Below are positions 4,254 through 63,973 of a stretch of DNA of 64,000 bases, piece by piece. The translations under genes and the position numbers were made by a program. The DNA is from Thelephora terrestris (Eukaryota > Basidiomycota > Agaricomycetes > Thelephorales > Thelephoraceae): contig WIUZ02000024.1 in assembly GCA_015956445.1 (NCBI GenBank), positions 62,001-126,000 on the forward strand, in the 5' to 3' direction. The notes beneath the pieces were generated by a model that saw nothing but the letters and a program-made list of their open reading frames with translations, was not told where the DNA came from and searched no databases. Positions within the stretch are counted from its first letter, which is position 1. Every line of letters starts with the position of its first letter.

Positions 4254-5116
4254 ATGCCAATGATCTCTGACCGAGTTTTCCGTGCTGAGAACAGCACTGC
4301 TACCATTGAGTCCGCAGATCCACGAGCTGTGCAGAACAAGCAGTACTTCCTTCCTGCTGCCAGCGTGGCGTACCCTAGTTATTGAGAGGTGCGACAGCAC
4401 GTGTCGCCGTTTGTTGGCAACAACTGATGTCGCTTTCGCAGATCTTTGCAGCTGCCAACAAGGTGGATGCTCATCAATTGGAGGCAACGATTGTCAATCC
4501 TCCTCGGTACTTGACCATGGACGACGAACTGTGGTTTCATAACTTGATTGACCACAAGTTGCAAGAGTCGATGCACAGAGTGACGTTCGACACCGAGCTG
4601 CGCATGCCATGGGAAACTCCAGTGGCGTCTGCCTTGTGGGGGCTCCTTCAAATGGGGATCTACGACCTGGGGGATGGTGAAGGAAGATGGCCTGGGGCCA
4701 CTCGCTCTCAGCATTACACAGCGGCCATTGGTCACCGTCTCTGGCTCCTATCATGGACAGAACAGAAAGTGGTGAGTCGATCTGTGCATCCCACTTGAGG
4801 GATAACACTGATTGGCTTGTTAGAATGAACGCTTGAAGCGTGAGGTGAAGGAAGTGAAGGACAATTCTCGCAGGATGTACCAGGAGATGCTAGACACCAA
4901 GAAGACTCTCCTCCTGATGAACGACACGCTTTGTGTGACGTTCGAGAGCGAGATGCTGGCAATGCGGGAGGAACACAACTGGTTGGTCGAGTCGTTGACA
5001 GAGCGGGACGACTGTGTGCAGAAAGACCTGATCGAGGTTGACTGACGTCTTAACTGTCACAGAAGGACTTTGAACAAGTTGGACACCAAGGTTGGCGTGA
5101 TGTTCCCCCGTAGTGA
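4254..5116 (+). pseudogene. Diverged paralog C of the coiled-coil family, 3' end lost
   Basis: Exon 1 begins with ATG at 4254 (MPMISDRVF...) and aligns with exon 1 of copy A (STATIES against GISTISR). Exon 2 is 4442-4771 (110 codons, contains MDDELWFHNLI against WDDELWVRTII). Exon 3 is 4824-5036, exactly 71 codons as in copy A, and coiled-coil-like (REVKEVKDNS). An in-frame TGA lies just before the apparent exon-1 donor near 4388. The gap before possible exon 4 (5037-5062) is too short for a normal intron. No exon 4-5 homologue follows, because a foldback element begins at 5117. I infer a decayed paralog. It is more diverged than A is from B, so it predates that duplication. Confidence 0.6.
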
Positions 5117-6059
5117 CACTGGGGACAAGTCGCTACTTACTGACCAGGTACTTTTTGAATACATTGTAGTTCCCTGTCCAATGTATTAAGACTTTGCTGG
5201 GCAAGAAAATGTTGAGTTCTTTCGGAATGTACTTAACAATGTAACTACTACTTCCCAGCTCAGTACATTGTGGAAACATTCAAAAAGTACTAAATCATGT
5301 GACCACAATGTCCCTGATCGGTAATTGTTCAATATTTTTTGATTGTGCTAAAGAAAGTGATCAACAAGTACCTGCGCTGTACATTGTGGTTTCAATTAAA
5401 ATTTACTGGGTCATGTGACTACAAAGTACCAAATTGGTGAATGCTGAGTACTTCTAGAATGTCCTGAGCCCATGTGTCCAAATTTTACACAAGTGGCTCA
5501 AAGAAAATGTGATCACAAAGTACTGAGACTGAGTAAATCCCAAACACTTTTTGAAAGAAACCAAAATATACTGAATCGTTTAAAAAGTACTGTGCAACGA
5601 TTCAGTATATTTTGGTCTCTTTCAAAAAGTGTTTGGGATTTACTCAGTCTCAGTACTTTGTGATCACATTTTCTTTGAGCCACTTGTGTAAAATTTGGAC
5701 ACATGGGCTCAGGACATTCTAGAAGTACTCAGCATTCACCAATTTGGTACTTTGTAGTCACATGACCCAGTAAATTTTGATTGAAACCACAATGTGCAGC
5801 GCAGGTACTTGTTGATCACTTTCTTTGGGACAATCAAAAAGTACTGAACGATTACTGACCAGGGACATTGTGGTCGCATGATTCAGTACTTTTTGAATGT
5901 TTCCACAATGTACTGAGCTGGGAAGTAGTGGTTACATCGTTCAGTACATTCTGAAAGAACTCAACTTGTTCTTCCCCAGCAAAGTGTTCATACATTGGAC
6001 ATGGAACTACAATGTATTTAAAAAGTACCTGGTTAGTAAGTAGGGGCTTGTCCCCAGTG
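5117..6059. mobile_element. CACTA-like foldback (MITE-like) element, 943 bp
   Basis: Near-perfect inverted repeat centred on 5588; each arm is about 470 bp, so the whole element is a hairpin. The ends read CACTGGGGACAAG and CTTGTCCCCAGTG. The arms are built from repeated short motifs such as AAAAAGTACT, ACAATGTA and AAGTACTGA, resembling the subterminal repeats of CACTA elements. Flanking triplets are TGA and TTA, an imperfect match to a 3-bp target duplication. There is no coding capacity: the two mirror-image 63-codon frames are products of the palindrome. Its sister is at 63134-63973. Mobilisation by a CACTA-superfamily (for example Plavaka) transposase is inferred. Confidence 0.8.
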
Positions 6060-6693
6060 TTAGGGATGAGACTTTGATGGGGTGGGTTGTGGAGATGGTT
6101 ACTGCTGGGACGTCTGGGTAGGGAAGACAATGGCTATGGGTTGCCAGTGTTATCGCTCACTCTTCCTGGGCCACCATCTTGGCCGGATTGGATGAGAGCT
6201 GGGCACCACTAGGAGACAGCTGGGACAAGTTTTACAGTTTGATACATTCTACTTTGGCTAGGTTCCTCTGCTACCAATGCTCATTGTCACTTAGCCTGGG
6301 ACAAAGTTATTCACGTTCGTGTTTTCATTTAGAAGTAGTCGTAATCCCACGTCTCGTCGGTGGTATGAAAACTAATTGATCGAATCGTCGGTGCTTGGCG
6401 TGAAAGTTTTGTCATTTGTGAACGTGTGGGTGTAAAACCGCTTCAACGAAAGTACATTTGTGAGACCATTCCCTAGGTAGGGTCTCTCCAAATAGCAGGA
6501 AAGAACATGGAGAGAACTGTAGTTCTGCTGAAGCGCATACATCCCACTCAGGGGTCGTATGCAACAAAACAAAATTCAACTCAAGATGTGCTTGATGAAC
6601 AAGCAGATGGCTCCGGAAAATGAAATAAAGTTTTAGTACTACTATATACACAGAAAAACTCACGTTTACAGAACATGCATACATTACAGGACT
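6060..6693. other. 3' flank of the NLR gene; no gene seen
   Basis: No supported coding sequence. Part of 6140-6450 is similar to 13080-13290 (shared CACTCTTCCTGGGCCAC, CACGTCTCG and GATGCTTGG-like blocks), showing that the NLR relic at 13 kb was copied with its downstream flank. Confidence 0.5.
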
Positions 6694-21564: not shown

Positions 21565-22276
21565 GGTCGGGAATCATGGCGGTTGTGAGAAAGCGGTGCG
21601 GTACCCTCGCGGTGAGGTAACGCCCGAAACGTAATACCCTAAGAATGACCGTTCGTGGTGGATTCGTGTTGACCCGGAGCGGGCGACAGCTGGGGGGGGT
21701 GGATGTGGCGGAAAACGGCGGTACACGGGGGTTCAACCGAGCGGAGCGACAAAGGGGTCGCTCGACGCTCAAGATAGAACCTGCGAGTGGCGGAGATGCT
21801 TTGCATTAGGATTTGGTGATGGGAGGGGGCGCGGGGGATGCCAACTTTGACGTGTTGAGCAAGTAGCTTTGGGTGTGACGCAGAGGTGGACACGGTCAAA
21901 TGTCAGGCGGTTCTCAACGCCCGGGCGCTCCGCATTGGTTGCAGGATGGGATGGATCTTTGATGATGAGTTTTTTCAGCGCGCGTGGAAAGTGCTGTGGG
22001 TAGAGACTTCATTGCCATAGGCCAACGTTGCTGAAGGGATCGGGAATGATCCGGAGTGAGATGACGGCGCCCACGGGGAGGAAGGGCTGCTGGTGTGAGG
22101 GGAAGGGGTCAGATAACGTTGGTTAGAACAGGGCAGGACGCACATAATGGCAACACGACGACCGATGTGCTGACCCGCGAGACCGGCAATGGGGCCACCA
22201 CGGAATTGAATTCGGAGTAACGGTACGGAGCTGAAGGGAACAAAACGCGCGAAACCGGTCATCAAGGAAGGGGTAG
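21565..22276. other. Intergenic, no gene seen
   Basis: About 0.7 kb between the NB-ARC remnant and the dispersed repeat. Short frames only; no motif recognised. No H2A-like gene, the usual divergent partner of H2B in fungi, is present here. Confidence 0.4.
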
Positions 22277-22480
22277 GACGAAAGGCTCCCTTCGGCTACG
22301 CCGCCAGGAGGTTAGAAAGAAGTAAAAAAGGTCGCAAGAAAGACTCCCTTCGGCTGGGCCGCCAGGAGGTTAGAAGAAGGGGAAATGTGGAGGGGATGGT
22401 CGCTGGCGATTTTGGCGGTGGCGAGCGAGAGCAGGGGAGAGTGGACACATCCCGAGCGATTATTACAATTACATACAGTG
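22277..22480 (+). repeat. Dispersed repeat, copy 1 (two 58-bp units plus tail)
   Basis: Two tandem units of the type GGCTCCCTTCGGCTGGGCC + GCCAGGAGGTTAGAAG, followed by GGAGGGGATGGTCGCTGGCG and ATTTTGGCGGTGGCGAG. The same arrangement, also with two units, occurs at about 60814-61010. The unit can fold: CCTCCTGGCGGC pairs partly with GCCGAAGGGAG on the other strand. No coding role seen. Class unknown. Confidence 0.6.
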
Positions 22481-22637
22481 CTGGGAAATCCCGGACAAAG
22501 GTTCGCCGCAACGCCATACATCAACATGTTCCATCACACCTTCATCCTCTGGCCGCTCCCATCGACGTCCTCCAGTGCAAACTGTGTCTCCCGGACTGCC
22601 CACCTCAAGCACTTTCTACCTTCGACTACCACTTTCC

Positions 22638-23362
22638 ATCAAGCGCACCAGGCCAGCTTTCACTGCCGAAAGACTTCTCGCCTCGAAGACTCCTGCCAAG
22701 ACCACTTCGGACACCGAAGCCAAGAATGCCACCAAGACTTCCACTGATACTGACGGTCGTTCTAAGACGAAGATTGGGAAGGAGACCTATATCTACAAGG
22801 GTACGCACTGAAGCACCCAAACACTCCCATCGCCGCGATCATTGGTCTTCAACTAACACTCTCAGTCCCTGAGCAGATCCACCCAGACACTGGTATCTCG
22901 AACGTCGACTCGCTCTTATTGACTAACAAGGCCATGGTCATTTTGAACTCATTCGTCAACGACATCTTTGAGCGCATTACGACCGAAGCATCCAATACCG
23001 GTATCTCCAACAAGGCCGTGGTCACCCTGAACTCATTCGTCAACGACACCTTTGAGCGCATCGCGACCGAAGCACCTGACACCGGTATCTCCAACAAGGC
23101 CGTGGTCGCCTTGAACTCATCTGCCAATGGTATCCTCGAGCGCACCGCGAACGGCATCGCAACCGAAGCACCCGATACCGGTATCTCCAACAAGGCCGTG
23201 GTCACCCTGAACTCATTCGTCAACAACGTCTTCAAGCGCATCGCGACCGAAGCATCCGATACCGGTATCTCCAACAAGGCCGCGGTCATCTTGAACTCGT
23301 TTGTCAACGATATCTTCGAGCGCATTGCCACCAAAGCTCTCGTTCGAGAGCATATCCAGTAG
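22638..23362 (+). CDS. Histone H2B-derived gene with five-fold repeated alpha-2 segment
   Basis: Exon 1 about 22638-22800, intron 22801-22865, exon 2 22866-23362. The N-terminal tail is H2B-like: [26 protein letters not shown]. After the intron come [13 protein letters not shown] and then [18 protein letters not shown], matching canonical H2B ([32 protein letters not shown]). A 7-residue insert VDSLLLT sits between TGISN and NKAM. The alpha-2 segment is then repeated five times (22925-23362). The frame stops after REHIQ, without alpha-3, alpha-C or the usual C-terminal AVTKY. No ATG is found where H2B should start: ATC at 22638 aligns with the expected initiator, although the frame is open upstream. 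It cannot make a normal histone fold. Either a pseudogene or a neofunctionalised repeat protein. H2B origin is sure; expression is unknown. Confidence 0.75.
22925..23362 (+). repeat. Five in-frame 84-bp repeats of H2B alpha-2
   Basis: Units begin at 22925, 23009, 23093, 23189 and 23273 (spacing 84, 84, 96, 84). The consensus unit is 28 aa: [18 protein letters not shown] then [10 protein letters not shown]. Unit 3 carries four extra residues ([13 protein letters not shown]). Differences between units are mostly replacements (M/V, I/T, S/P, N/D), which suggests weak constraint, yet all five stay in frame. Confidence 0.9.
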
Positions 23363-23960
23363 CCACCACCTCCTTCCTTAGTAGCTATTCGTCCACTATG
23401 CCATCAGGACCCCTTCAATTTCGATTTTCACGGTTATAGACGCAAGATCCATGGCTCTCAGTCCAATCAGTGGGTGTAGGATACTGAGCAGCCATCTATG
23501 TATCGCAATCTTGTAATTACTGGCATATAATCGAGTATTCGAGAATTTTAAGAATGGCGAAACAAGCGTAGTGGTTTTCTTGGGTGGTTGACAGCGAAGA
23601 CTTCTGCCATCGGGTCTGTGTTACAATGATTAGAAGTGCACGTATATTATGGATACTCACCCACCGGAATATCATGCAATGCAACCAAACCCCCAGACGA
23701 TGGTAAGCAGTTGCACACAATGGTACCCCCAGTGGAAGCGATACAGTCTTTTATGACGAGTTGTAGGGTTCGGGCAACGAAATTGCAGGAACTTATAATC
23801 AATTATAATTGCAAAACAGGATCATTATGATCCGCTACGCGTGCCACCCCAGGATCTTGACAACGGTTTATAACGAATTATAAGCCACTATCTGGGAAGC
23901 GGACCCCTCACCAGCACCACAAGGCTATATCGGGTTTTCCCCGACCTGCTGATGCCAGCC
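23363..23960. other. Intergenic, AT-rich, no gene seen
   Basis: 3' flank of the H2B-derived gene. AT-rich near-palindromic bits such as TATAATCAATTATAAT near 23793 and ATCATTATGATCC near 23820. No gene supported. Confidence 0.4.
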
Positions 23961-24075
23961 AATGCGGATGGGTCGATCACGATAGACAAGTGAGCCGTTG
24001 ACCAAGAAGCCTGGAACTCCAGAGACGGAAGAAGGGGAAAGCTTGCCGTTCAATCCTTAACGTTTCAACCTGAGA
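23961..24075 (-). pseudogene. NLR relic B (short)
   Basis: About 115 bp matching relic C near 34350-34540 (shared GATAGACAAGTGAGCCGTTG, CCAGAGACGGA and GAAAGCTTGCCGTTCAA). Too short to carry a domain. It marks the left edge of the segment duplicated from the 34-35.7 kb locus. Confidence 0.55.
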
Positions 24076-24770
24076 GCTGCTGGCTGAACCGGAGATCCCA
24101 AAGGACGACGATGTTTTCTTCCACCATGATTCGCAAACGACCTCCTTAACCTCTTGTGGTTAGTTGTTTCCTTCTTGAACGCTGGCATGTTCTCAACTGC
24201 CCGCTCTTTTACAGGATGTGAGAGTGGACGTAGAATTACATTGACGATGTAATACTATCAAATTTATGCTACCTTTGGCTCCCCTTTTACCTCGCACGCG
24301 TTCAACAAGCAGGGTGGCGGAAGATCATCTATCGCATCCTCGGAAGCCGCGCTATCATGTGAAACCAGTGAAGAGGAGGACCCAGGGATCAAGTCATCGA
24401 GGAACAGATGAAGCCCATCGTCAGATGGAAAGTCTGGGTGAAGTAGAGCCTCCGAGGTAGCGCCGCCCTGCTTGACGAGATGGATCCACTCATATTGTCT
24501 GGATGGCCGAGGAGAACGCCCGCGGCGGGGATCTGGACGCTTGAGCGAGGTCGTGAGAACCTGGAGAACACGAAAGGTCGACTCGGGAGTGGAAGACGGC
24601 AGATCCAGACTGATTTCGGCGCTCATTCCCTCAGACATTGAGGGTATCTCTACGCTGTCGTCCATGCAGGGATCATACATTCGTCGCAATCTTGGATGTT
24701 GGAGTACATCGCAGCAGAGAACCTCACAAGGAGCAAAATTCGCACCGCCAGCGAGAAGCTCGGACACCAA
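24076..24770 (-). pseudogene. Rearranged partial copy of the hypothetical gene at 35153-35794
   Basis: 24291-24690 matches 35312-35690 in the same orientation (minus-strand MDDSVEIPSM, PDPRRGRSPRPSRQYEW, LHLFLDDLIPGS, DDLPPPCLLNA). 24076-24290 matches 34999-35222, but inverted. The region corresponding to 35223-35311 is missing. The inversion replaces the C-terminus after PPPCLLNA by unrelated residues, and the N-terminus is also foreign. It is a damaged duplicate; the parent is the 35-kb gene. Confidence 0.7.
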
Positions 24771-33769: not shown

Positions 33770-34560
33770 ATCTGTGTCACAGAAGATCCGTACGTTATTG
33801 GTCTCTACGAAGGGCCATATGAACAAAATCTAGAATCATCAACTTTCCAGTCCCGTACAAAGCAAGCATGTATCGACCATTCCACACGGCTCTACCAGGG
33901 TACGCGAATTGCCCAGGCAGCCGGAAGACTTCTTTTCCGGAAGCGGTATCTACGATCCTGCTTTGGACCGTGCCGTCCCCACAGGTGGCGTGCATACAAG
34001 CCAGACGCAGTCTGTTAGACATTCTGGCTGAGTCCAGGGGAGGTGAATTTGGATTCCCCCAAGTCCAAACCCCAGGCTTGCGACCCATCCAAATAATGAA
34101 GCCAGATAGTTGGGCCGTCCAAGTGAACTGAGAGCAAGTTTGGCGGGTGGGTGTAATTTGGTGAAATGTTTCCGTGCTCTCCCCTGTGGATATAGACGAG
34201 GCCCGAATCCACTGCGTATTCACCACAAAAAACGTGGACCCATCCTTCGATATCCCCAGGTCATGGTAGGGGGTGTGAGAATACCGAGGTCACCTGATGG
34301 AGGTTCTCCCTGGAGCCTTTTCCCCGCCTCAGCATCCCACGTGAAGTCGTACCAACCAATACGGAAGGGCCGATCGCGATAGACAAGTGAGCCGTTGACC
34401 AAGAAGCCTGTAACCCCAGAGACGGATGACGGTAAGAAGAGACGCCAGTTTTGAGGTGACTCTGACGCGCTGGTAACGAGGATCCAGGTTAGAGGGGGAG
34501 AAGGAGAAAGCTTGCCGTTCAATTCCTAAAGTTTCGACTGTGTCGGCCCTGGAAAGTTGA
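33770..34560 (-). pseudogene. NLR relic C: WD40 C-terminus
   Basis: The minus-strand frame 34226-33795 has TWGNPNSPPLDSAR, SRIVDTASGKEVFRLP and GRYMLALYGTGKLMILDF. It aligns with the very end of the intact NLR (SRIVDTTSRTEVFRLP, GRYLFAISNTEEVLILDF). Further upstream, YDFTWDAEAGKRLQ and PSGDLGIL match another blade, in a different frame. No NACHT domain is left. A decayed copy and the parent or sister of relic B. Confidence 0.75.
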
Positions 34561-35152
34561 CGTGGATAAAATGATATATGACATGACGTTTTAGCCGTAG
34601 TTTTCATGTCTGTCATCGAGTGGGCGCATGTGAGTCCAGCTGCAAAAGATGGATTGGTGGTTGGATAGTACCTGCTGTTTCTCTGGACGTGAAGCCTTCG
34701 TCCGTTTCAGTGACGAGTGTAGCGGCCCCTTCCGGGGCACAAAGGTAATCATGTCACGAATGGCTTCTTCAAGCAAAAGGGCGATCCCAGGCCATAGTAG
34801 CAGTGACGAGGGTCGAGCACTTAGCTGGGTAAGGATGAAAGCATGTTCGCAGGTCCTGGGTTTCCCACCGAGCAGACCACGAGTGGCTAGCAATCCATGT
34901 GTGGAGTAAAGAGATACGGAAATAGAGCAGCTGATTTTCCAGGTGACTGTTCGATCGCATCGGCGTTGAGCGTATCCTTCGCTTACAAAAGAGTTGCGAG
35001 GTAAAAGGTGAGCCAAAGGTAGCATAAAATTGATAGTATTACATCGTCAATGTACTTCTACGTCCACTCTCACATCCTATAAAAGAGCGGACAGTTGAGA
35101 AAATGCCAGTGCTCAGAAAGGAAACAACAAACCATTCACACGCTGTAAAGGT
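34561..35152. other. Spacer, partly duplicated at 24.1-24.3 kb
   Basis: 34999-35152 is the left part of a block repeated, inverted, at 24076-24290. A 144-codon minus frame at 34591-35025 has no domain and its start region lies inside the duplicated block; I do not call it. Confidence 0.4.
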
Positions 35153-35794
35153 CTAGGAGGTCGTTTGCGAGTCATGGCGGAAGAAAACGTCGTCGTCCTT
35201 TGGGGTCTCCGGTTCAGTCAGCGGCTCTCCGCCTCTTTCAGTCGGATTCCTCGAGTGAGAGCGCGAGCGGGGAGAGGAAGCTCTGTGCGTGTGTTTTGAC
35301 AACGAGCTAAACGCGTTCAACAAGCAGGGTGGCGGAAGATCATCTATCGCATCCTCGGAAGCCGCGCTATCATGTGAAACCAGTGAAGAGGTAGACCCAG
35401 GGATCAAGTCATCGAGGAACAGATGAAGCCCATCGTCAGATGGGAAGTCTGGGTGAAGTAGAGCCTCCGGGGTAGCGCCGCCCTGCTTCACGAGATGGAT
35501 CCACTCATATTGTCTGGATGACCGAGGAGAACGCCCGCGGCGGGGATCTGGACGCTTGAGCGAGGTCGTGAGAACCTGGAGAACACGAAAGGTCGATTCG
35601 GGAGTGGGAGATGGCAGATCCAGACTGGTTTCGGCGCTCGTTCCCTCGAACATGGAGGGTATCTCTACGCTGTCGTCCATATAGGGTTCAAAAGGCGGGA
35701 AGACGGGGCAAGCAAGAGCTCTAAGATCGGGAGCACCAGGACACTTCAAGGGGGACGATTCGAAAGACGTGGAGGATGGTGAGCGTGGGGACAT
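35153..35794 (-). CDS. Hypothetical Ser/Pro-rich protein
   Basis: 213 aa if translation starts at the ATG at 35794 (MSPRSPSSTSFESS); the frame is open further upstream to 35959 but that would overlap the NF-YC start. Features: acidic and hydrophobic FRVLQVLTTSL, a basic patch PDPRRGRSPRSSRQ, LHLFLDDLIPGS, DDLPPPCLLNAFSS, and a Ser/Arg/His-rich region before the stop. No domain recognised. It is divergent from the NF-YC gene, 163 bp apart, and its central part is duplicated at 24.3-24.7 kb. Retention of the long frame and the duplication's identical frame favour a real gene. Confidence 0.5.
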   Translation of the reverse strand: MSPRSPSSTSFESSPLKCPGAPDLRALACPVFPPFEPYMDDSVEIPSMFEGTSAETSLDLPSPTPESTFRVLQVLTTSLKRPDPRRGRSPRSSRQYEWIHLVKQGGATPEALLHPDFPSDDGLHLFLDDLIPGSTSSLVSHDSAASEDAIDDLPPPCLLNAFSSLSKHTHRASSPRSRSHSRNPTERGGEPLTEPETPKDDDVFFRHDSQTTS

Positions 35795-48598: not shown

Positions 48599-48951
48599 TG
48601 TTGAGCAGGTAGAGTATATTCTATACTACTACATGGCGTACTCTAGTTCTTACCTGAGAGGGGAAGATATAGTAGTGCAAGTGGGGGAGAGAGAGAGAGA
48701 AGCGATTGATTGATCTATGGACACATGAGGGGTATATATACTATCTACTCTATTAACGTCACATCTATACAGTGTGACTGATGCATGGTCCGTGCGGCGG
48801 CTTAAGGCACGCGCGCGTTACACCGATCGATCGGGTCACTGATGTGACTCCGTCCCTTCGGGTCGCTTATTCAGCGCTCTCCGGCATCGGCTCTCGCTCG
48901 AAGCGGTAGAGCCGGTTGACCCGTTGCCGGGCACAGACCTTCGGTTCAACA
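48599..48951 (-). repeat. 3' LTR of the Copia element
   Basis: 353 bp; same sequence as 55303-55655 as far as I can compare by eye. Contains a GAGAGAGAGAGAG run and TATATATACTA. Bounded by TTTTG outside. Confidence 0.92.
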
Positions 48952-55302: not shown

Positions 55303-55655
55303 TGTTGAGCAGGTAGAGTATATTCTATACTACTACATGGCGTACTCTAGTTCTTACCTGAGAGGGGAAGATATAGTAGTGCAAGTGGGGGAGAGAGAGA
55401 GAGAAGCGATTGATTGATCTATGGACACATGAGGGGTATATATACTATCTACTCTATTAACGTCACATCTATACAGTGTGACTGATGCATGGTCCGTGCG
55501 GCGGCTTAAGGCACGCGCGCGTTACACCGATCGATCGGGTCACTGATGTGACTCCGTCCCTTCGGGTCGCTTATTCAGCGCTCTCCGGCATCGGCTCTCG
55601 CTCGAAGCGGTAGAGCCGGTTGACCCGTTGCCGGGCACAGACCTTCGGTTCAACA
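55303..55655 (-). repeat. 5' LTR of the Copia element
   Basis: 353 bp; partner of 48599-48951. Followed outside by the TTTTG duplication, and inside by the primer-binding region whose plus-strand reading contains GGGCTCATAACC. Confidence 0.92.
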
Positions 55656-60700: not shown

Positions 60701-60813
60701 TAGCAGGCGTTGGAGGAGCGGAAGACTGGGGGAAAGAGGAGGGCTACAGTAACCAAAGGAAAAGAAAGGTGTCAACTTGAAAGAATCCCTGAAGTAAGAG
60801 GAAGCAGCTGGTC

Positions 60814-61010
60814 GAAAAGCTCCCTTCGGCTGGGCCGCCAGGAGGTTAGAAGTAAAAAGGGTCAAATGAAGGGCTCCCTTTGGCTAGGCCGCCAGGAGGT
60901 TAGAAGTAAAAAGGGAAACACGGAGGGGATGGCTGCTGGCGATTTTGGTGGTGGCGAGAAAAGGTGAGTGAGAGTTGATCGATCCTAAGCAGTCGTTATT
61001 AGAATTACAC
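60814..61010 (+). repeat. Dispersed repeat, copy 2
   Basis: Two units of GCTCCCTT(C/T)GGCTGGGCC + GCCAGGAGGTTAGAAG starting near 60818 and 60868, followed by GGAGGGGATGGCTGCTGGCG and ATTTTGGTGGTGGCGAG. Same layout and unit number as at 22277-22480, 38 kb away. Confidence 0.6.
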
Positions 61011-63133: not shown

Positions 63134-63973
63134 CACTGGGGGCAAGGGGTCACTTACCCAGCAATGACATTGTGATTACATTGTGATTTTTTAGGCAATG
63201 TGTGCAGCCTGTGGCCAAGAGGTACATGCTGAGTTCTTTTACAAAGTACCCATCAATGTGACCACAATGTGGCCAGTGGGTTCATCTTGATCACTTTTAC
63301 AAAGTACCCATCAATTCGATCACAATGTGCCCTGTGGGTCCATGCAGGATACATTGTAAAAGTATCCATCAAAGTGGCCACTGGGCACTTTGTGAAAGAA
63401 ACCCCTGGGTTCTTTCACAATCTTGCTTACAAAGTGTCCAGCATACACCTGAGCCACTCATTGAGAATTCTTTCAGAAAGTATCCAACAATGTTTCCACA
63501 AAGTATTCAACCAGATACTCAATGGTTTCTTTGAAAGTTTGTTGTAAAATCCAACCACATTGAGAGTTCATTGTGAAAACATTGAGAAGAACCTCCTGGG
63601 GACATTGTGGTCACATTGCTGGTTACTTTTTGAAAGAACTCTTAATGAGTGGCTCAGGCACCCAGTTGCATAAATTGTAAATAATATTGTGAAAGAAAAC
63701 CCTGGTTTCTTTCACAAAGTGCCCAGTGGCCACTTTGATGGATACTTTTACAATGTATCCTGCATGGACCCACAGGGCACATTGTGATCGAATTGATGGG
63801 TACTTTGTAAAAGTGATCAAGATGAACCCACTGGCCACATTGTGGTCACATTGATGGGTACTTTGTAAAAGAACTCAACATGTACCTCCTGGCCACAGGC
63901 TGCACACATTGCCTAAAAAATCACAATGTAATCACAATGTCATTGCTGGGTAAGTGACCCCTTGCCCCCAGTG
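63134..63973. mobile_element. CACTA-like foldback (MITE-like) element, 840 bp
   Basis: Inverted repeat centred on 63553, arms about 400 bp. Ends CACTGGGGGCAAGGGG and CCCCTTGCCCCCAGTG. Flanked by a 3-bp duplication ATA (63131-63133 and 63974-63976), as expected for CACTA-superfamily insertion. The arms are packed with TACAAAGTAC, CAATGTGA and ACAATGTGG motifs on both strands. It sits next to the first visible exon of the second Plavaka gene. No coding capacity. Same family type as 5117-6059 but a different subfamily (internal sequence differs). Confidence 0.88.

What the first reader, a model, noticed from the sequence alone, without database searches (positions are those of the whole stretch)
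22638..23362. Histone H2B turned into a five-repeat alpha-2 helix protein
An H2B N-terminal tail and loop lead into five in-frame 28-residue copies of the H2B alpha-2 segment ([18 protein letters not shown]...TGIS). Alpha-3 and the C-terminal helix are absent. I know of no described protein built from tandem H2B alpha-2 helices. The frame survives five units, an 84-nt period and one 96-nt unit, although unit-to-unit differences are mostly replacements and the H2B start codon position reads ATC. It is either a pseudogene that amplified by slippage or unequal exchange, or an unusual helical-repeat protein.
Basis: partly seen in the sequence, partly recalled or inferred. Interest (0 to 1): 0.8.

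Follow-up and report, generated by a model that had tools for sequence, protein, structure and literature searches.

The report
Decayed histone H2B copy, repeated helix
A stray fungal copy of the DNA-packaging protein histone H2B has lost its usual start and its end while one of its helices was repeated five times in a row; it is most likely a dead gene that still happens to read open, with a small chance that it makes a new repeat protein.

Summary
A degenerate H2B tail (22638-22800), a 65-nt GT-AG intron that keeps the H2B frame (22801-22865) and the H2B loop lead into five in-frame copies of an 84-nt L1/alpha-2 segment (22925 to about 23338) and a TAG at 23360. Alpha-3 and alpha-C have no detectable remnant. 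No other histone is detectable in the window, and transposons lie nearby. No ATG precedes the tail in its own genomic frame; reaching one needs an extra, weak 5' intron. Every unit has lost residues shared by four reference H2Bs. The open frame says little: simulated neutral arrays stay stop-free in 63-96% of cases, or always if only transitions occur. The replacement test is borderline (P 0.013-0.14), so weak protein constraint is not excluded. Transversions are unexpectedly rare (34 transitions to 2, against 268 to 125 in 12 other repeat pairs). Best reading (0.75): a DNA-level H2B duplicate that became a pseudogene and was amplified internally. Expressed repeat protein in the H2B frame: 0.13; in another reading of the tail: 0.05.

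The parts
22638..22800 (+). degenerate H2B N-terminal tail, reading ...[40 protein letters not shown]; no ATG before it in the same genomic frame
   Evidence: tblastn with yeast H2B 47.9% over 48 aligned columns; phmmer E 0.028 to yeast H2B; upstream in-frame scan
22801..22865 (+). 65-nt GT-AG intron that preserves the H2B frame (GTACGC...CTAAC at 22853...CAG)
   Evidence: joins YIYK to [12 protein letters not shown] in H2B order and frame; Basidiomycota have introns in histone genes (PMC3029354)
22866..22900 (+). end of H2B alpha-1 and loop L1 ([12 protein letters not shown])
   Evidence: tblastn alignment to yeast H2B
22901..22924 (+). 24-nt in-frame insertion (boundary ambiguous by the flanking AAC), absent from the other units
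   Evidence: gap in the tblastn alignment with yeast H2B; absent from units 2-5; letters checked
22925..23008 (+). unit 1 ([28 protein letters not shown]); holds the first ATG in array frame, at 22934
23009..23092 (+). unit 2
23093..23188 (+). unit 3, 96 nt; 12-nt in-frame insertion at 23144-23155
23189..23272 (+). unit 4
23273..23338 (+). unit 5, incomplete (no TGIS linker)
23339..23362 (+). C-terminus LVREHIQ without significant H2B similarity, and stop TAG (23360-23362)
   Evidence: no significant residual alpha-3/alpha-C
22726..22800 (+). rival model A: ATG at 22726, joined by an alternative acceptor ending at 22876 (or 22873), enters the array frame (186 or 187 aa)
   Evidence: enumeration of 2 ATGs and 4 acceptors
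22526..22583 (+). rival model B: ATG at 22526, joined by an extra 5' intron 22575-22656 or 22584-22656, enters the tail frame (229 or 232 aa)
   Evidence: no CTRAY branch-like site in either of these introns

Best explanation
A fungal H2B gene, intron included, was copied at the DNA level into a transposon-bearing region and became a pseudogene. Its start codon and the second half of the histone fold were lost, and an 84-nt segment (loop L1 plus most of alpha-2) was amplified in tandem to five copies by slippage or unequal exchange, probably including a step that copied two units together (the 180-nt period). Shown: H2B origin, an intron-like stretch that keeps the frame, five divergent units, no ATG in the genomic frame of the tail, no detectable alpha-3/alpha-C, no other detectable histone in 64 kb. 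Inferred: DNA-level duplication, the amplification mechanism, the order of losses, that the intron would splice, and lack of a product.
For: H2B identity. A retained intron-like stretch, which argues against a retrocopy; introns are present in Basidiomycota histone genes. No ATG before the tail in its genomic frame. No detectable alpha-3/alpha-C. Of 13 positions identical in 4 reference H2Bs, units 1-5 differ at 1, 3, 5, 4 and 2. No significant H2A, H3, H4 or second H2B in the window (next best E 0.27). Mobile or repeated DNA in the window: Plavaka transposase domain at 16.3-17.7 kb, copia-type genes at 49.0-54.9 kb between identical 300-nt repeats, duplicated pieces 23955-24675 / 34352-35690. 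Neutral simulations give 63-96% chance of no stop. 180-nt period, 1.9 copies at 88%.
Against: All five units stay in frame; both insertions (24 and 12 nt) are multiples of three, whereas 13 of 17 gaps in the comparison repeat pairs are not. Replacement changes are somewhat fewer than neutral expectation (18 against 23.7, P 0.025; 20 against 26.6, P 0.013 with an H2B-like ancestor; 18 against 21.4, P 0.14 with the array's own spectrum). Transversions are rarer than in the comparison pairs (34:2 against 268:125, P 4e-4), which plain neutral decay does not predict. ATG 22526 can be joined to the tail frame by either of two extra 5' introns, and ATG 22726 to the array by an alternative acceptor, all stop-free, so the missing start is not absolute.
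Confidence: 0.75

Rival explanations
1. An expressed helical-repeat protein in the H2B frame: translated from the Met in unit 1 (ATG 22934, 142 residues), from ATG 22526 through an extra 5' intron (229 or 232 residues, tail included), or from a non-ATG start; it would be a chain of linked alpha-2 helices.
For: Open frame through five units and two in-frame insertions; fewer replacements than neutral in some models (P 0.013-0.07); pooled pN/pS 0.35; two 5' introns (22575-22656, 22584-22656) join ATG 22526 to the tail frame without a stop; AlphaFold2 draws five helices of 24-27 residues.
Against: No ATG before the tail in its genomic frame; the two 5' introns have no CTRAY branch-like site, unlike 22801-22865; ATGs at 22526 and 22726 lie in other frames ahead of ATG 22934; unit 3 departs at 5 of 13 shared H2B positions; very low model confidence (mean pLDDT 42.1), while a H2B core from L001 folded the same way reached 56.7, itself low; P 0.14 with the array's own spectrum.
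Confidence: 0.13
2. A young gene made from H2B parts: translation starts at ATG 22726 in another frame of the old tail, splices 22800 to 22877 (or 22874) and enters the array frame, giving 186 (or 187) residues with an arginine-rich leader ([25 protein letters not shown]).
For: The combination exists with a GT-AG intron of 76 (or 73) nt and no stop; 2 of the 8 ATG/acceptor pairs tried reach the array, both from ATG 22726.
Against: With three frames some such pair is expected by chance; the acceptors lie 8 and 11 nt beyond the first AG after the CTAAC site; no expression data.
Confidence: 0.05
3. A noncoding repeat in which gene conversion or an unusual mutation process, not protein selection, shapes the units.
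For: Transitions 34 of 36, against 268:125 in 12 other repeat pairs of the window.
Against: Changes polarised by an assumed H2B-like unit go both ways (T>C 13, C>T 11, A>G 8, G>A 6, transversions 2), so this is not the C-to-T pattern of repeat-induced point mutation; comparison pairs vary from 0.90 to 4.83, so the excess may partly be heterogeneity.
Confidence: 0.05
4. Assembly artefact.
For: Tandem repeats are prone to misassembly (general knowledge).
Against: Units are 80-90% identical to each other, so each is distinct. No reads were available to check.
Confidence: 0.02

Closest known systems
Canonical fungal histone H2B gene
   Same: tail, end of alpha-1, loop L1, alpha-2 and an intron, as in Basidiomycota histone genes
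   Different: no ATG in the genomic frame of the tail, no detectable alpha-3/alpha-C, alpha-2 segment five times; intron position not compared, as the paper's supplement could not be opened
Duplicated histone pseudogenes (recalled kind)
   Same: disabled histone copy away from other detectable histones
   Different: internal tandem amplification of one helix; I saw no such case in the listings of seven paper searches
[quoted passage not shown]
   Same: several histone parts in one reading frame; [quoted passage not shown]
   Different: those join whole histone folds; here part of one fold is repeated
PDB 8grq chain D, named H2B, 188 aa
   Same: the only one of the 60 sequences shown with more than one matched stretch (3)
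   Different: H2B-like stretches at 19-62 and 113-154, spaced like two longer copies, not an alpha-2 array; origin of that chain not checked

Membership tests
Histone H2B | H2B tail, loop L1 and alpha-2 sequence | tested here: met
   (weak for the tail)
Histone H2B | complete histone fold (alpha-1, L1, alpha-2, L2, alpha-3) and alpha-C | tested here: not met
   no tblastn match past unit 5; residual test P 0.65; alpha-1 altered and shortened (KETYIYKVPEQI)
Histone H2B | start codon in the H2B frame | tested here: not met
   no ATG between stop 22371 and the tail in the genomic frame; only an extra 5' intron could supply ATG 22526
Histone H2B | assembly into nucleosomes | not testable with these tools
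   needs protein
Pseudogene of H2B | homology to a functional gene plus disabling changes | tested here: met
   the parent gene itself was not available
Pseudogene of H2B | neutral evolution (no protein constraint) | tested here: inconclusive
   P of so few replacements 0.14, 0.013-0.07
Pseudogene of H2B | no product | not testable with these tools
   no RNA or protein data held
Retrocopy (processed pseudogene) | introns absent | tested here: not met
   intron-like stretch 22801-22865 kept between tail and loop
Helical-repeat protein | repeat units fold into helices that pack | tested here: inconclusive
   five helices drawn, mean pLDDT 42.1, 143 of 145 residues under 50

The most novel reading that the evidence does not exclude
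The locus is a new gene born from a dead histone: the H2B tail is read in another frame as an arginine-rich leader (ATG 22726), an alternative acceptor (22873 or 22876) joins it to the array, and five tandem alpha-2 helices, freed from the histone fold, form a small repeat protein under weak selection.
Probability: 0.05. Interest if true: 0.75.

Novelty: new variant of a known kind. Interest (0 to 1): 0.33.

Why it matters
Histones are among the most constrained proteins (established knowledge), so a histone helix that is cut loose and repeated is a clear test case for how repeat proteins may start from slipped DNA. If expressed, it would be a rare example of a histone fragment remade as a helical array. 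As a pseudogene, it is a reminder that an open frame over a few repeats is weak evidence for coding.

Tried and rejected
Own-genome search for the intact H2B: no genome is held. Relatives of the array in viral contigs: none of 37 pattern matches confirmed. A 92-aa fungal-type H2B query: none of 25 pattern matches confirmed in viral contigs; 5 loci from 404 pattern matches in prokaryote genomes. L003 and L004 look like eukaryotic DNA in bacterial MAG records, judged from neighbouring ORFs; for L005 the ORFs were listed but not interpreted, and the surroundings of L001 and L002 were not examined. One search loaded all five loci and used L001-L004. Its conservation count used four sequences (L001, L002, L004, yeast); L003 dropped out because its loop reads HPDVGIS and the script's motif missed it.

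DNA test for a residual C-terminus: the rows for L001 (P 0.017) and L004 (P 0.16) used a wrong slice, because the motif EAS is absent there, and are discarded; the valid rows, L002 and L003, gave P 0.14 and 0.95. Repeated at protein level (P 0.65). The resemblance of VREHIQ to H2B SREIQT is therefore not evidence.

Repeat-induced point mutation: rejected, since 21 of 40 changes polarised by the assumed H2B-like unit are A>G or T>C. Stop-free frame as proof of coding: rejected. The 24-nt insertion as an intron remnant, and CAYCCA microhomology at unit junctions, were considered and not tested. The 12 comparison repeat pairs were picked by hand; several are pieces of the same duplicated genes and some may be coding, so they are not a clean neutral standard. 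Structure: array mean pLDDT 42.1, L001 H2B core 56.7, both without an alignment, so no fold search was run. Paper searches listed nothing on a histone helix array or a fungal histone pseudogene with repeats; I saw listings and starts of abstracts only, apart from PMC3029354 (part 1 of 3 and passages) and PMC9145170 (passages).

The novel case was set from 0.07 to 0.05 to agree with its rival entry.

Full report
What is there. Window positions 22638-23362 hold a copy of histone H2B with an unusual anatomy. A 65-nt intron-like stretch (22801-22865; GTACGC at its start, CTAAC at 22853 and CAG at its end) joins the tail to [12 protein letters not shown], the end of alpha-1 and loop L1, in the H2B frame. 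After a 24-nt in-frame insertion come five units starting at 22925, 23009, 23093, 23189 and 23273. Each of the first four is alpha-2 up to TEA(S/P) plus a copy of the loop end TGIS. Unit 3 carries 12 extra nt that look like a duplication of the RIAT codons. Unit 5 ends without the loop and runs into a TAG at 23360. Tandem Repeats Finder gives period 84 (4.8 copies, 78%) and also a period of 180 (1.9 copies, 88%), which suggests that a two-unit block was copied. Pfam PF00125 matches at E 1.8e-19 with four stretches; of the 16 families listed at E<=1 only this and the related CBFD_NFYB_HMF pass their curated cut-offs. In a PDB search 175 distinct sequences matched at E 0.01 or better, and the 60 shown are H2B or H2B chimeras by name. 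This is far from chance.

Surroundings. Of 10 long reading frames given to Pfam, 4 had a match: a NACHT/WD40 protein, a Plavaka transposase domain and the two halves of a copia-type element. Identical 300-nt direct repeats at 48599 and 55303 flank the copia genes. Downstream of the array, pieces of 23955-24675 recur at 34352-35690, part direct and part inverted. No significant match to H2A, H3, H4 or another H2B exists in the window.

Is it a working gene? The genomic frame of the tail has no ATG from the stop at 22371 on. The first ATG in array frame is the Met of unit 1 at 22934. The second half of the histone fold is missing and no trace is detectable (P 0.65). At 13 alpha-2 positions identical in four reference H2Bs, units 1-5 differ at 1, 3, 5, 4 and 2. 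By its missing fold it cannot serve as an ordinary H2B (inference). The kept intron argues for DNA-level copying, not a retrocopy; introns in Basidiomycota histone genes are documented (PMC3029354, part 1 of 3 and passages), but I could not compare positions, as supplements could not be opened.

Does the array evolve as a protein? From the majority consensus there are 36 substitutions: 18 codons changed by replacement and 14-15 silently (the two calls broke consensus ties differently). Pooled over the ten unit pairs pN/pS is 0.35, but this simple count ignores the transition excess. Neutral simulations gave: with the array's own spectrum P 0.14 for so few replacements and 0.96 for no stop; with transitions only P 0.068 (0.043 with an H2B-like ancestor) and no stops at all; with the transversion share of the other repeat pairs P 0.025, no stop 0.65; the same with an H2B-like ancestor P 0.013, no stop 0.63. 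Shared changes between units are counted more than once, so these P values are if anything too small. The stop-free frame is uninformative and the replacement test is borderline. Both insertions are multiples of three; in the comparison pairs 13 of 17 gaps are not, but two events prove little.

An unexplained pattern. The array shows 34 transitions to 2 transversions, against 268 to 125 in 12 other repeat pairs of the same window (Fisher P 4e-4). The pairs were picked by hand, are partly pieces of the same duplicates, and range from 0.90 to 4.83, so heterogeneity may soften this. Changes go both ways, so it is not repeat-induced point mutation. I leave it open.

Could a protein still be made? 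Two routes exist on paper. First, of two ATGs and four acceptors tried downstream of the one donor, 2 of 8 pairs reach the array: ATG 22726 with an acceptor ending at 22873 or 22876, giving 187 or 186 residues with an arginine-rich leader. Second, ATG 22526 reaches the tail frame through an extra 5' intron, 22575-22656 or 22584-22656, giving 229 or 232 residues that keep tail and array; neither intron has a CTRAY branch-like site. Such combinations are expected by chance often enough to prove nothing, yet they are the concrete forms in which a gene could exist. An AlphaFold2 model of the array shows five helices but with mean pLDDT 42.1; the H2B core of L001, folded the same way without an alignment, gave 56.7. 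No structural claim can rest on this.

Verdict. Most likely a DNA-level H2B duplicate turned pseudogene, with internal tandem amplification of the loop/alpha-2 segment (0.75). A translated repeat protein is possible (0.13 in the H2B frame, 0.05 for the other reading of the tail). It differs from viral histone doublets to quadruplets, which join whole folds; [quoted passage not shown] My paper searches listed no described tandem array of a histone alpha-2 helix, within an open-access library only.

Noticed in passing
22925-23338: Transitions outnumber transversions 34 to 2 among the units, against 268 to 125 in 12 other repeat pairs of the window; both directions occur.
   Followed up: partly
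22901-22924: 24-nt in-frame insertion that can be read with a GT start and CTAAC near its end, possibly a remnant of a second H2B intron (not tested).
   Followed up: no
48599-48898 and 55303-55602: Identical 300-nt direct repeats flanking copia-type genes (gag, integrase, RVT_2), so probably a recent insertion.
   Followed up: partly
5116-6060: Near-perfect palindrome: 465-nt arms, 94% complementary, 15 nt apart.
   Followed up: no
63134-63973: 299-nt inverted repeat (97%) whose arms contain a 58-nt tandem unit; distant copies (62-63%) of that unit were also listed near 5.2 and 5.8 kb.
   Followed up: no
23955-24675 and 34352-35690: Rearranged duplicate, part direct and part inverted; 24296-24675 matches 35311-35690 at 95.5% without gaps.
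   Followed up: partly
22265-22426 and 60799-60958: Dispersed repeat of about 160 nt holding two similar stretches about 58 nt apart, just upstream of the H2B copy.
   Followed up: no
L003, L004: MAG records named as bacteria that carry eukaryotic-looking DNA: L003 holds H3, H4, H2A and H2B ORFs, L004 (on a 603-kb contig) an H2B near ORFs that look like V-ATPase subunit A and an importin (my reading); likely contamination.
   Followed up: partly
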